A stretch of DNA of 64,000 nt, from the NCBI RefSeq assembly GCF_010729105.1, contig NZ_AP022573.1:2232001-2296000 (forward strand). Direction: 5' to 3'. Position numbers and translations under genes: made by a program. The stretch's first letter is position 1. The number at the start of each line of letters is the position of its first letter. The stretch comes from Mycobacterium saskatchewanense (lineage in GTDB: Bacteria; Actinomycetota; Actinomycetes; Mycobacteriales; Mycobacteriaceae). The notes below the pieces were generated by a model. It did not search any database and had not been told where the DNA came from. It saw only the letters and a program-made list of their open reading frames with translations. Positions 33,750 to 54,010 of this stretch are shown here, piece after piece.

Positions 33750-33770
33750 TTAACCTCAGCCTGAGGCTAA
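33750..33770. promoter_or_regulatory. Near-perfect 21-bp operator-like dyad upstream of stf0-cysD-cysNC
   Basis: Left arm TTAACCTCAG and right arm CTGAGGCTAA flank a single central C; the arms match at nine of ten positions. A one-base centre cannot form a hairpin loop, so protein binding is more likely. It lies about ten bases upstream of the predicted -35 box of the sulfur operon. Confidence 0.6.
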
Positions 33771-33779
33771 TTCGATGTC

Positions 33780-50600: not shown

Positions 50601-53600
50601 AGCCGGCGCACGCCCACCGGCAGGAGCAGGCCGCCTGCGCCCGCCCTCTGCACCTCGGGGTGGACGATGACCGACTGGAAGCACGCGTCCAGCAGGGCCG
50701 GGTGGGTGGCGTAGGCGATCTGCTGCGAGCGGATCGTCGGCGGCAGCGCCACCTCCGCGAGCACCGTCGTGACCTCGCCCTCGGCGGTCCGCGTCGCGGC
50801 CAGTCCCGCGAAGGCCGGTCCGTACTGAATGCCCACGGCGTCGAAGGCTTTCCGTAGCTCGGCGCCATCCACGCGGGATGGGTGCGCGGCGATCAGCGTG
50901 TCCAGGTCATGGGCGGGCGGCTGTTGCTCCTCCGCTTCCGCCTGGTTCGCGGAGTGCAGGACGGCGCTCGCCCGCCGGATGCGTTCGCCCTCCTCGTTGG
51001 TTTCCACGGTGAACTCGAGGACGCCCGGCGCGGCGACCGTGGCCGACGACGACGCCCGAGTGTGGTCGTCGAGCAGCAGCGTCTGCTCGAACTTGATGTC
51101 GCGGACCTCCGAGCCCTCGCCGAGGGTCGCGCTGGCCGCTGCGAGCGCCATCTCGCAGTACGCGGCGCCGGGAAGGGCCGCGACACGGTGGATTTGGTGG
51201 TCACCGAGCCACGGGTGCGCCTCGGTGCCGATCTCGCCCTGCCAGACATGGCGCTCCGGCTCCTCGTGCAGGTGCACGTGCGCGCCGAGCAGCGGGTGCA
51301 CGGTCTGCACCGCCGTGCCGCGCGTCTGATCGAGCGACTCGCGGCTCAGCAGGAGGTCGCGGTGGGTCCAGGTGGGCAGCGGCGCGTCCAGCAGGCGACC
51401 GGAGGGGTATTGGACCGAGAAGTCGACCACGGCCCCGGCGCTGTGGACGTCGGCGACGAAGCCGCGCAGGCCGAACGGCACCTCCTGCTCGCGCCGCATG
51501 GCCGCCAGCGCGGCGATCGGCATGTCCAGGCTCGCCGCGTTCTGCTCGACGGCGTGGGTGAGCAGCGGATGCGGCGCGAGCTCACCGAAGACCCGGAACC
51601 CGTCCTTGAGGGCCGCCTGGACGGCCGCTGCGAACCGCACGGTGTAGCGCAGGTTTTCCGCCCAGTAGTCCGCGTCGAACTCGGGGCGTTCCTTGGGGTT
51701 CCACAGCGTCGCCGAGTAGTACGGCACCTCCGGCGTCCGGGGCTGGAGGTCGGCGAGGGCCTCGACGAGCTCGTCGAGGATGGGGTCCACCTGCGGCGAG
51801 TGCGAGGCGACGTCCACGGCCACCTCGCGGGCCATCACGTCCTGCTCCTGCCAGGCCGCGACCAGGTCGCGGATCGTCTGGGTGTCGCCGCCGACGACGG
51901 TCGACGTCGGCGAGGCCACCACGGACAGCACCACGTCGGACACCCCGCGAATGGACAGCTCCGAAAGCACTTGCTGGCCCGGCAGTTCCACCGACGCCAT
52001 GGCGCCACTACCGGAGATCCGCTTCATCAGCCGTGAGCGCCGGCAGATGACGCGCAGCCCGTCCTCGAGCGAGAGCGCTCCGGCGACCACGGCGGCCGCG
52101 GACTCACCGAGCGAATGCCCGATGACCGCCCCGGGGCGCACCCCGTAGGACTTCATCGTCTCGGCGAGGGCGACCTGCATCGCGAAGATGGTCGGCTGCA
52201 CGCGGTCGATACCGGTGACCGTCTCGGGCGCCGTCATGGCCTCGGTCACCGAGAAGCCGGATTCCTCGGCGATCACCGGCTCGATCGCGGAGATGGTCGC
52301 CGCGAACACCGGCTCGGTGGCCAGCAGCTCGGCGCCCATCTTCGACCACTGTGAACCCTGGCCGGAGAACACCCACACGGGGCCGCGGTCATCCTGGCCG
52401 ACGGCCGACTCGAACGGGATGTCGCTGTCGGCCACTTCCCGCAGGGCCTTGCTCAGCTCGCCAAAGTCACTGGCCGCCAATACCGTTCGCACCGGCCGGT
52501 GTGCACGGCGCCGCGCCAGCGTGTAACCCAGATCGCGCAGGGCCGCGCCACCGGCGCCTTGGAAGTCGTCGACCCAGTCCGCCAGGCGGGCGGCGGTGAC
52601 CCGCAACTGCTCGGCCGAGGTCGCGGAGACGGGAAAAAGCAGCGGCCCGCCTTCTGCCGGCACCTCCGGCTCGTCGAGGGGAGGGGCCTGTTCGAGAATG
52701 GCGTGCACGTTGGTGCCGGACAGCCCGTAGGACGACACGGCGGCACGCCGCGGGTGGTGACCGTTGGTGGGCCACGGCGTGTTGTCCTGCGGCACAAAAA
52801 GTTCCGTCTTGATCTCGGCCAGCTGATCGGGCAGCCGGGTGAAGTGCAGGTTCTGCGGAACCACGCCGTGCTGGAGCGCGAGGATGGCCTTCATCAGCCC
52901 CAGCGCCCCCGACGTGGACTGCATGTGGCCGAAGTTGGTCTTCACCGATCCGAGTGCGCACGGGCCTTCTGCCCCGTACACGGCGGCCAGGCTCGCGTAC
53001 TCGATCGGATCACCGACCGGGGTCCCGGTCCCGTGGGCTTCGACCAGACCGATCGTCGAGGGCTCCACGCCCGCGGCGGCCAGCGCGTCCCGGTAGACGG
53101 CCACCTGCGCGGTCTCCGAGGGCGTCGCGATGTTGACGGTGCGGCCGTCCTGGTTGGCCGCCGTGCCGCGCAGAACCGCCAGGACACGGTCGCCGTCGCG
53201 TTGCGCGTCCGCCAACCGCTTGAGCAGCAGAACGACGCAGCCCTCGCCCGAGACGAACCCGTCCGCCGCCGCGTCGAACGCGTGGCACTTGCCGGTGGGT
53301 GACAGCATGCCCTGCAGAGAGCCGGTGATCGACTTGCGGGGTTCCAGGGTCACCACGACGCCGCCGGCCAGCGCGAGGTCGCTTTCACCGCTGTCCAGGC
53401 TGCCGCACGCCTGGTGCACCGCCATCAATCCGGACGAGCAGGCCGTGTCCACCGTGAAGGCCGGACCGTGCAGGCCCAGCGCGTACGCCACGCGCCCGGA
53501 CGCGAGGCTGGGACTGGTGCCGGCGAATCCGTACGGTCCCTCGGCGGCGCCGATCTCGGCGGTCAGCAGCTCGTAGTCGCCATGGGTGAGGCCCACGAAG

Positions 53601-54010
53601 ACGCCGGTCTGCGACCGGGCCAACGAGGCCGGATCGAGGCCGGCGTGCTCGATGGCGTCCCATGACGATTCCAACAACAGGCGGTGCTGGGGGTCGATCG
53701 CGATCGCCTCGCGTTCGGTCATCCCGAAGAAGTCACAGTCGAAGCCCCCCACATCGTCGAGGAAGGCACCCCACCGTGTGACCGACCGGCCGGGGACGCC
53801 GGGCTCGGGGTCATAGAACTTGTCCGCGTCCCACCGCTCGAGGGGGATCTCACCGACGAAGTCGTCGCCGCGCAGCAGCGCGTCCCACAATCGTTGCGGG
53901 GAATCGATCCCGCCGGGAAGTCGGCAGGCCATACCGATGACGGCAACGGGTGTGGCGTTTGCGGCGCGCAATGTGGGAGCCCCCTGTTCTCGCCCAACGG
54001 CATTGGGCAT
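47639..54010 (-). CDS. Mycocerosic-acid-synthase-type iterative polyketide synthase (Pks3/4-Msl3-like)
   Basis: This 2123-aa type I PKS has a full reducing module. KS: Cys191 in VDTACSSG, His326 in EAHGTG, His362 in NFGH. AT: Ser633 in GHSLGES, and VASH at 734-737, the pattern expected for methylmalonyl-CoA. DH: His938 in GDHQIHRVAALPG. ER: HSGTGGVGQAA near 1567. KR: VTGGIGGLG near 1777 with a SSAAALVGSPGQGAYAAAN active site. ACP: Ser2076 in GLDSLG. This order is that of MAS-like enzymes that make methyl-branched fatty acids. M. tuberculosis has the orthologue split as pks3 and pks4; here it is intact. ATG 54010 is chosen over an upstream frame extension. Confidence 0.93.
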   Translation of the reverse strand: MPNAVGREQGAPTLRAANATPVAVIGMACRLPGGIDSPQRLWDALLRGDDFVGEIPLERWDADKFYDPEPGVPGRSVTRWGAFLDDVGGFDCDFFGMTEREAIAIDPQHRLLLESSWDAIEHAGLDPASLARSQTGVFVGLTHGDYELLTAEIGAAEGPYGFAGTSPSLASGRVAYALGLHGPAFTVDTACSSGLMAVHQACGSLDSGESDLALAGGVVVTLEPRKSITGSLQGMLSPTGKCHAFDAAADGFVSGEGCVVLLLKRLADAQRDGDRVLAVLRGTAANQDGRTVNIATPSETAQVAVYRDALAAAGVEPSTIGLVEAHGTGTPVGDPIEYASLAAVYGAEGPCALGSVKTNFGHMQSTSGALGLMKAILALQHGVVPQNLHFTRLPDQLAEIKTELFVPQDNTPWPTNGHHPRRAAVSSYGLSGTNVHAILEQAPPLDEPEVPAEGGPLLFPVSATSAEQLRVTAARLADWVDDFQGAGGAALRDLGYTLARRRAHRPVRTVLAASDFGELSKALREVADSDIPFESAVGQDDRGPVWVFSGQGSQWSKMGAELLATEPVFAATISAIEPVIAEESGFSVTEAMTAPETVTGIDRVQPTIFAMQVALAETMKSYGVRPGAVIGHSLGESAAAVVAGALSLEDGLRVICRRSRLMKRISGSGAMASVELPGQQVLSELSIRGVSDVVLSVVASPTSTVVGGDTQTIRDLVAAWQEQDVMAREVAVDVASHSPQVDPILDELVEALADLQPRTPEVPYYSATLWNPKERPEFDADYWAENLRYTVRFAAAVQAALKDGFRVFGELAPHPLLTHAVEQNAASLDMPIAALAAMRREQEVPFGLRGFVADVHSAGAVVDFSVQYPSGRLLDAPLPTWTHRDLLLSRESLDQTRGTAVQTVHPLLGAHVHLHEEPERHVWQGEIGTEAHPWLGDHQIHRVAALPGAAYCEMALAAASATLGEGSEVRDIKFEQTLLLDDHTRASSSATVAAPGVLEFTVETNEEGERIRRASAVLHSANQAEAEEQQPPAHDLDTLIAAHPSRVDGAELRKAFDAVGIQYGPAFAGLAATRTAEGEVTTVLAEVALPPTIRSQQIAYATHPALLDACFQSVIVHPEVQRAGAGGLLLPVGVRRLRNYRSTRNAHYCLTRITSSRPGECVADLEVLDQAGTVLLTVEGLRMAGGASGHEQDQRVLNERLLTIEWEPRDLPETPANEPGSWLLLDASDGADPFATQLAEALETSGAQCATASLPLGSGDTDRLRSLLSGRGAVASNGHGAAHAVLKGLTGVVVLAAPSGEGADRLRRGRDHVSHVVAVARELSELPGQAPRLFVVTRNAATVATGDVANLEQAGLRGVLRVIDAEHPHLSATQIDLDAATEPARVAAQLASGSDEDETAWRGGEWYTARLRPGPLRPAERRTAVVTHDRDGTRLRIRIPGDLESLEFTAFDRVPPGPGEIEVAVTASTINFADVLVAFGRYPTFEGFQQQLGGDFAGVVTAVGPDVTEHKIGDHVGGMSRNGCWGTFVIADAEHAVALPPEVPLRDAAAVPTASATAWYSLHDLARISPDDKVLVHSGTGGVGQAAIAIARAVGCEIFATAGSPERRQLLRDMGIEHVYDSRSTDFADEIRRDTDGHGVDVVLNSLPGAAQRAGIDLLAFGGRFIELGKRDIYRDTRLGLFPFRRNLSMFAVDLALLTYTHPRTLRRLLETVYERTASGELPLPKTTHYPIHDAAAAVRLVAGAGHTGKVVLDVPQAGSSVAVVPPEQVRPFRSDGAYIVTGGIGGLGLFLAGEMASRDGAAGCGRIVLNSRSAPDEGAQEAIERLRAAGADIQVECGDIADPGTARRLVECATASGLPVRGVLHGAAVVEDATLTNVSDELIDRCWAPKVYGAWNLHEATAGQPLDWFCSFSSAAALVGSPGQGAYAAANSWLDGFAHWRRAQGLPCTAIAWGAWSEVGRATALAEGAGVAIKPAEGYRAFETLLRYDRPYAGYAPIMGTPWLTAFAQRSRFAEAFQSMSQGKRDTGKFLAELKALPREEWPSAIRRLVSGQISLLLRRTIDPDRPLSDYGLDSLGNLELRTRIETETGVRISPTKITTVRGLADHLCDELVDLEAATAAS

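What the first reader, a model, noticed from the sequence alone, without database searches (positions are those of the whole stretch)
33750..54010. Sulfation module fused in synteny to a full acyltrehalose lipid locus: possible sulfated acyltrehalose pathway
Sequence shows stf0-cysD-cysNC overlapping head to tail, then a YeiH-like transporter, then fadD21, a Gap/Sap-family protein, chp2, mmpL10, papA3 and an intact MAS-type PKS. In M. tuberculosis, as I recall, trehalose sulfotransferase (Rv0295c), cysDN and the DAT/PAT locus are far apart, and sulfolipid-1 uses a different PKS, Pap, MmpL and Chp set. Finding PAPS synthesis, trehalose-2-sulfate synthesis, branched-chain acid synthesis, acylation and export within 20 kb suggests one product: a sulfated di- or polyacyltrehalose, or two related glycolipids sharing trehalose. 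Close placement alone does not prove a joint pathway.
Basis: partly seen in the sequence, partly recalled or inferred. Interest (0 to 1): 0.82.

Follow-up and report, generated by a model that had tools for sequence, protein, structure and literature searches.

The report
Acyltrehalose lipid locus with sulfation genes
In this Mycobacterium, genes that make sulfated trehalose sit inside a gene cluster for fatty-acid-decorated trehalose lipids, which suggests, but does not prove, that the organism makes a sulfated surface lipid of a kind known from the tuberculosis bacillus.

Summary
Confirmed: stf0-cysD-cysNC (overlapping), a YeiH-like gene, fadD21, sap and chp2 run one way; an intact MAS-type PKS, papA and mmpL converge on them (33808-54070). 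It is a DAT/PAT-type acyltrehalose locus, not an SL-1 or TPP locus, at the site where M. tuberculosis has DAT/PAT (order partly recalled); the sulfation cassette lies between a PucR-type regulator gene and fadD21. The linkage is not a one-off: 5 of 11 sampled genomes with both parts have them within 13 kb, with varying gene content, and these five are not one clade on the neighbouring fbiC gene (AU p 0.0037). The cassette's CysNC is a second paralogue. In two relatives another sulfate-activating pair (Sat, CysC) sits in the same locus, but there the acyl genes are partly lost. Against a joint product: 12 of 25 genomes with this papA have no stf0 and 2 only fragments; 183 of 192 stf0 genomes lack this papA; PapA's acceptor-side residues match unsulfated-type PapAs, not PapA2. 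A sulfated di-/polyacyltrehalose is my leading reading (0.43), barely ahead of unsulfated DAT/PAT beside independent trehalose-2-sulfate (0.42).

The parts
33808..34617 (+). stf0, trehalose 2-sulfotransferase (start may be GTG 33814)
   Evidence: NF047724 454 bits over cut-off 400; 492 bits to solved Stf0 1TEX; only match in the genome at E<=0.001
34614..35537 (+). cysD, ATP sulfurylase small subunit; ATGA overlap with stf0
   Evidence: TIGR02039 429 bits over cut-off; sequence
35537..37462 (+). cysNC, ATP sulfurylase GTPase subunit fused to APS kinase; cassette-linked paralogue distinct from the copy at genome position 2148009
   Evidence: NF004035 778 bits over cut-off; second copy 50% identical
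37522..38775 (+). YeiH-like membrane protein (PF03601); true start probably about 20 codons further in
   Evidence: PF03601 300 bits; TIGR00698 118 bits, below cut-off 232.6; aligned relatives have stops before that point
38845..40584 (+). fadD21, fatty-acyl-AMP ligase
   Evidence: NF038337 FAAL_FadD21 1143.8 bits over cut-off 1100
40614..41264 (+). sap/gap-family membrane protein
   Evidence: PF11139 SfLAP 207 bits; nearest rows in the tree are slow-grower saps, mostly beside stf0
41417..42496 (+). chp2-type PE-PPE-domain acyltransferase
   Evidence: PF08237 230 bits; GLSQG serine invariant in the nine aligned proteins; tree
43123..46107 (-). mmpL10-type lipid transporter
   Evidence: TIGR00833 877 bits; tree places it outside the SL-type and TPP MmpL clade
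46171..47586 (-). papA, PapA3-type acyltransferase with HxxxD
   Evidence: PF00668; tree; acceptor-side residues A/P/T/N
47639..54070 (-). MAS-type iterative PKS, KS-AT-DH-ER-KR-ACP, single open frame (start uncertain; KS domain begins near residue 40)
   Evidence: domains; motifs
31543..33159 (+). PucR-type regulator, left border of the site
   Evidence: PF13556; conserved in relatives
29849..31606 (-). rocA, pyrroline-5-carboxylate dehydrogenase, left flank
   Evidence: TIGR01236 850 bits, over cut-off
28896..29849 (-). proline dehydrogenase, left flank
   Evidence: NF045947 222 bits, below cut-off 500
54709..57303 (-). amino-acid-permease-like protein, right border of the site
   Evidence: PF13520 85 bits; conserved border in relatives

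Best explanation
A DAT/PAT-type acyltrehalose locus that carries its own trehalose sulfation line and most likely makes a sulfated di- or polyacyltrehalose. Proposed order: CysD-CysNC make PAPS; Stf0 makes trehalose-2-sulfate; FadD21 loads a starter acid on the PKS, which builds a methyl-branched acid; PapA puts a straight and a branched acyl chain on the unsulfated glucose of trehalose-2-sulfate, and perhaps on plain trehalose too; MmpL and Sap move the diacyl product outward; Chp2 transfers further acyl chains between diacyl molecules. Shown here: the genes, their frames, overlaps, families, position and recurrence. Inferred: co-transcription, PapA accepting trehalose-2-sulfate, and the product.
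For: Stf0-to-chp2 genes run one way with short gaps (overlaps); the scan found no terminator-like site between them, one inside yeiH (total below chance). Linkage within 13 kb in 5 of the 11 genomes with both an E<=1e-200 papA and stf0, with different contents: G000 complete; G232, G230 and G134 without fadD21 there; G020 (M. simulans) without yeiH and sap, where fadD21 follows cysNC directly. The five are not one clade on fbiC (AU p 0.0037). CysNC: 12 of 20 chosen genomes have a copy 83-100% identical to the window's, and all 12 also keep a 50-52% copy, which fits a dedicated PAPS source. In L084 (MAG) and G041 a Sat + CysC pair sits inside an acyl locus of this type at the same site, though that locus is incomplete in both.
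Against: 12 of the 25 genomes with this papA have no stf0 match and 2 only fragments; 183 of the 192 stf0 genomes lack this papA. In G346 the locus sits at the same site with no stf0 between pucR and fadD21. PapA has A/P/T/N at PapA2 positions 171/307/324/384, the same as the TPP PapA rows and stf0-less relatives and unlike PapA2 P/T/T/S; the PapA2 zinc ligands are absent. PapA1-type rows (G/P/T/N), whose M. tuberculosis counterpart takes a sulfated acceptor, make this not decisive. Of the 6 genomes with only the second CysNC, 4 (G003, G014, G212, G346) have stf0, so Stf0 does not need the cassette copy. In L084 papA is a fragment and in G041 chp2, mmpL and papA are gone, so Sat-CysC may have come with decay. 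Flanking genes are collinear too, so adjacency is partly plain synteny. fadD21 is missing from the site in three of five.
Confidence: 0.43

Rival explanations
1. Two independent pathways at one site: the acyl locus makes ordinary unsulfated DAT/PAT, and Stf0 makes trehalose-2-sulfate for another use, as it must in the many species without this acyl locus.
For: No stf0 in 12 of 25 genomes with this papA, fragments in 2 more; stf0 cassette without the acyl block at the same site in G223, G103, G123, G027 and G357; PapA acceptor-side residues as in unsulfated-type PapAs; window PapA, MmpL, Chp and Sap lie outside the SL-type clades; the M. tuberculosis DAT/PAT pathway gives unsulfated lipids (PMC4183827, abstract and passages).
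Against: fadD21, sap and chp2 follow the sulfation genes on the same strand with short gaps; the link is kept in genomes that are not one clade while other genes come and go.
Confidence: 0.42
2. The pucR-permease interval is a turnover hot spot for envelope-lipid and sulfation genes; the neighbourhood reflects repeated insertion and loss without functional coupling.
For: Variable content between constant borders: PPE genes, Sat-CysC, a Sulfotransfer_1 enzyme, a long frame alpha/beta-hydrolase-like by eye, pks block or none; in L084 and G041 Sat-CysC sit in partly lost acyl loci; a fadD21-like N-terminal remnant, by eye, beside sap in G218.
Against: Contents are not random: sulfate-activation, sulfotransfer and acyltrehalose genes recur.
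Confidence: 0.13
3. A one-off rearrangement or assembly error in this strain.
For: None found.
Against: Same junction in four other genomes, three of them named by matching contig lengths; the window genome is one contig.
Confidence: 0.01

Closest known systems
M. tuberculosis DAT/PAT locus (pks3/4-papA3-mmpL10-chp2-fadD21)
   Same: FadD21 model passed; PapA3/MmpL10/Chp2/MAS-PKS set with one PapA; rocA and proline dehydrogenase beside it (Rv1185c fadD21, Rv1187 rocA, Rv1188 in PMC8157059 passages; Rv1184c = Chp2 in PMC4183827 passages; Rv1180-1183 and Rv1186c order recalled)
   Different: stf0-cysD-cysNC-yeiH between regulator and fadD21, sap between fadD21 and chp2; PKS in one frame (two genes in M. 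tuberculosis, recalled). No M. tuberculosis sequence of this locus was compared.
M. tuberculosis sulfolipid-1 locus (papA2-sap-chp1-mmpL8-papA1-pks2-fadD23; order recalled)
   Same: uses the Stf0 product; sap + chp convergent with mmpL-papA-pks
   Different: window has one PapA, not PapA1+PapA2; four gene trees keep it out of the SL-type clades; in M. tuberculosis stf0 (Rv0295c, recalled) is not in the locus
Trehalose polyphleate (TPP) locus, MSMEG_0408-0412 (PMC10465359 passages)
   Same: Pks, PapA3, MmpL10, FadD, PE set on trehalose
   Different: this genome has a separate TPP-type locus at 1.73 Mb; window PapA, MmpL and Chp fall outside the TPP clades
Stf0 and CysD-CysNC of mycobacteria
   Same: curated models passed; solved Stf0 1TEX is the only match among solved structures
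   Different: second, cassette-linked CysD-CysNC beside an acyl locus

Membership tests
DAT/PAT-type locus | FadD21-class FAAL | tested here: met
   1143.8 bits, cut-off 1100; the genome's TPP FadD scores 936.8
DAT/PAT-type locus | single PapA outside the PapA1/PapA2 clades | tested here: met
   PapA tree; PapA2 clade anchored by an 820-bit match to 6aef; PapA1 clade named by locus position; no M. tuberculosis PapA3 sequence was in the tree
DAT/PAT-type locus | MAS-type PKS with full reductive set | tested here: met
DAT/PAT-type locus | chromosomal site beside rocA/proline dehydrogenase | tested here: met
   G346 has rocA-pucR-fadD21-sap-chp2|mmpL10-papA3-pks-permease; M. tuberculosis numbers from papers and recall
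DAT/PAT-type locus | unsulfated product | not testable with these tools
   needs lipid analysis
SL-1 locus | PapA2 + PapA1 pair | tested here: not met
   one PapA in the locus; tree
SL-1 locus | PapA2 zinc ligands C19/H21/H124/H135 | tested here: not met
   window S/Q/H/L (positions from PMC6996325 passages)
SL-1 locus | Stf0 available | tested here: met
TPP locus | PapA/MmpL/PE in TPP clade | tested here: not met
Stf0 | curated equivalog model | tested here: met
   454 bits, cut-off 400
YeiH sulfate exporter | TIGR00698 cut-off | tested here: not met
   117.8 bits, cut-off 232.6
'acyltransferase PE' (NF041570) | curated cut-off | tested here: not met
   330.7 bits, cut-off 580

The most novel reading that the evidence does not exclude
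Slow-growing nontuberculous mycobacteria make sulfated acyltrehaloses with DAT/PAT-type enzymes, separately from SL-1, and the pucR-site locus was sulfation-linked in a slow-grower ancestor, so the unsulfated M. tuberculosis DAT/PAT arrangement is what is left after the stf0 cassette and sap were lost.
Probability: 0.3. Interest if true: 0.78.

Novelty: new variant of a known kind. Interest (0 to 1): 0.6.

Why it matters
Sulfolipids and di-/polyacyltrehaloses are described as lipids of the tuberculosis complex (PMC10715180 passage: 'TB complex-specific lipids'; PMC5431016 passages: sulfoglycolipids only in the two M. tuberculosis wild types among its test strains). A locus that joins sulfate activation, trehalose sulfation, branched acid synthesis, acylation and export predicts such a lipid in other species, gives a testable route to it, and offers a view of how the SL-1, DAT/PAT and TPP pathways diverged.

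Tried and rejected
PhoP-box scan (pattern recalled): 2 hits against 6.3 expected, nothing. Promoter/terminator scan: one promoter-like site (1.0 expected) and two terminator-like sites (6.0 expected), nothing. SL-1 membership: rejected by trees. TPP membership, my first idea: rejected. PapA acceptor-pocket test: went against the sulfated reading; it rests on docking in PMC6996325. Homologue search with the chp2 alignment (284 proteins, best 120 listed) gave no listed name of M. tuberculosis; M. tuberculosis was not among the 80 loci kept of 112. Structure prediction and fold search were not used: no coordinates are returned, so they would not tell the acceptor.

In the stf0-sap count I used only printed rows: 149 stf0 genomes and 149 sap genomes, 92 with both; the tables were cut off, so genomes with later rows were dropped. 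For the trees I chose the loci by hand, and hits covering under 80% of the query were dropped, among them the papA fragment of L084. In one search four rows (G237, G155, G069, G164) were scored 'stf0 at the site' from stf0-sap adjacency and the missing papA alone, without reading the site; ten of the 30 rows were left unscored. Between drafts I lowered the lead reading from 0.45 to 0.43 and raised its first rival from 0.40 to 0.42 and the hot-spot rival from 0.12 to 0.13, because the Sat-CysC loci of L084 and G041 are incomplete acyl loci. One search was a report attempt that failed its format check.
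Full report
WHAT IS THERE. From 33808 to 42496 seven genes run on the + strand: stf0, cysD, cysNC, yeiH-like, fadD21, sap, chp2. From 54070 down to 43123 the - strand holds pks, papA, mmpL. stf0/cysD share ATGA and cysD/cysNC share TGATG. The other gaps of the first run are 59, 69, 29 and 152 bases by the listed starts; the yeiH start is probably further in. The PKS is one frame with KS, AT, DH, ER, KR and ACP and recognisable active-site motifs.

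WHICH FAMILY. PapA, MmpL, Chp and Sap trees of 42, 46, 38 and 36 rows put the window's PapA, MmpL and Chp with rows from slow growers, Mycolicibacterium and Mycolicibacter, apart from TPP rows and from SL-type rows of G212, G218 and G235; Sap is apart from the SL-type rows too. Three of the four trees are quick searches with SH-aLRT support only. The SL type is anchored by G212's PapA, which scores 820 bits to solved PapA2 6aef against 516 for the window's. FadD passes the FadD21 cut-off and the genome's TPP FadD does not. The genome carries the window locus and a separate TPP-type locus. So this is a DAT/PAT-type locus.

WHERE IT SITS. Left: PucR-type regulator, rocA, proline dehydrogenase. 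Right: permease, DapC-type aminotransferase, ferredoxin, hemophore-related protein, FbiC-type FO synthase. In M. tuberculosis fadD21 is Rv1185c, rocA Rv1187 and proline dehydrogenase Rv1188 (PMC8157059, passages), chp2 Rv1184c (PMC4183827, passages); the rest of that order is recalled. In G346, a 4.2-Mb genome next to M. lepromatosis and M. uberis in the trees, the order is rocA-pucR-fadD21-sap-chp2|mmpL10-papA3-pks-permease, with about 180 bases between the matched ends of pucR and fadD21. The window has the same site with stf0-cysD-cysNC-yeiH between pucR and fadD21.

HOW GENERAL IS THE LINK. stf0 was found in 192 of 248 sampled genus genomes; papA of this type (E<=1e-200) in 25 of 395 (by the handle numbers these hold the 248). 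Of the 25, 11 have stf0, 2 only fragments, 12 no match. Of the 192, 9 have this papA. Of the 11: within 13 kb in G000, G020, G134, G230, G232; apart in G049, G185, G143 (about 100-115 kb), G346 and G357 (over 1 Mb); undetermined in G061 (different contigs). At the same site G223, G103, G123, G027 and G357 have pucR-stf0-cysD-cysNC-yeiH-sap-permease and no acyl block; G357 has an acyl locus elsewhere. M. simulans keeps the right border but not pucR beside stf0. Among genomes with a printed row for both genes, sap lies within 10 kb of stf0 in 22 of 92, on the same strand in all 22; 24 are 10-200 kb apart and 46 further or on another contig. On a DNA tree of fbiC from 30 chosen genomes, 20 of them scored for the site, the composite needs at least 3 changes, the acyl block 4 and stf0 at the site 2, and one clade for the five composite genomes is rejected (AU p 0.0037). 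fbiC is one linked gene and its deeper branches are weak, so this shows 'not one clade here', not whether the composite is ancestral with losses (which I prefer: a fadD21-like start, by eye, beside sap in G218) or was assembled more than once.

SULFATE ACTIVATION. In 20 chosen genomes, 12 have a CysNC 83-100% identical to the window's; all 12 also have a 50-52% copy; 6 have only the second, 4 of these with stf0 (G003, G014, G212, G346); G247 and G068 have neither at E<=1e-100. In this genome the second CysD-CysNC is 118 kb away. In the MAG L084 and in G041 an ATP sulfurylase Sat and a stand-alone APS kinase lie inside a fadD21-sap-...-pks locus at the pucR site (L084 proteins pass curated models; G041 copies 94-95% identical); but G041 lacks chp2, mmpL and papA there and L084's papA is a fragment. 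G090 and G247 have Sat, CysC and a Sulfotransfer_1-type enzyme beside stf0-sap; G218 has CysC and two such enzymes near sap.

RESULTS AGAINST. PapA positions near the docked trehalose-2-sulfate in PapA2 (171, 307, 324, 384; PMC6996325 passages) read P/T/T/S in the 3 PapA2-type rows and A/P/T/N in the window, in the 9 TPP rows and in relatives without stf0 (G013, G063, G066, and G068 with fragments). The acyl locus persists where stf0 is absent or decayed. Sap also occurs near TPP-type loci (positions) and in stf0-less Mycolicibacter, so it is not a mark of sulfation. fadD21's counterpart (74-76% in G020, G357, G041) is missing from G232, G230 and G134, where the best FadD is 65-66%.

READING. 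The joint pathway leads narrowly because the fatty-acid loading, export and transacylation genes share a strand and short gaps with a PAPS/Stf0 unit that has its own CysD-CysNC, and because the link recurs. Two separate pathways at one site are almost as likely, since PapA's acceptor is untested and the best-studied relative makes unsulfated lipid.

PRINT. Searches (open-licence PMC library; 5 to 25 rows listed each, several lists cut) showed no listed title about stf0 joined to a DAT/PAT-type locus or about sulfated acyltrehaloses in nontuberculous species. Passages of PMC10465359, PMC4183827, PMC5431016, PMC6996325, PMC8157059, PMC3141025, PMC10715180 and PMC11633156 were seen, none read in full. 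Subscription papers are not covered.

Noticed in passing
L203, L204, L205 (G212, G218, G235): SL-1-like loci (PapA2-type and PapA1-type papA with chp, mmpL and sap) in genomes of 5.6-6.4 Mb, larger than the M. tuberculosis complex (about 4.4 Mb, recalled).
   Followed up: partly
L065, L090, L092 (G235, MAG LS_ISSM_2_bin.59, M. colombiense NS-7390): Hybrid loci: TPP-type pks and papA beside chp2 (and in L065 and L092 mmpL) of the window's type.
   Followed up: no
G000:C1:295000-309999 (L206): A third papA/mmpL/MAS-type PKS/fadD locus in the window's genome (papA 48%, pks 65% to the window's).
   Followed up: no
L208, L209, L217: Sat-CysC or CysC plus Sulfotransfer_1-type enzymes at the stf0/sap site in G247, G090, G218; PPE-like frames in L208 and L217 (by eye).
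   Followed up: partly
window 33256-33588: Small frame with a secretion-signal-like start (by eye) between pucR and stf0.
   Followed up: no
L076-L079, gap between sap and permease: A stop-to-stop frame of 413-431 codons, alpha/beta-hydrolase-like by eye only, takes the place of the acyl block.
   Followed up: no
L061 12230-14086; L062 5916-7708: About 1.8 kb of extra DNA between cysNC and yeiH in G232 and G134, no clear shared gene seen.
   Followed up: partly
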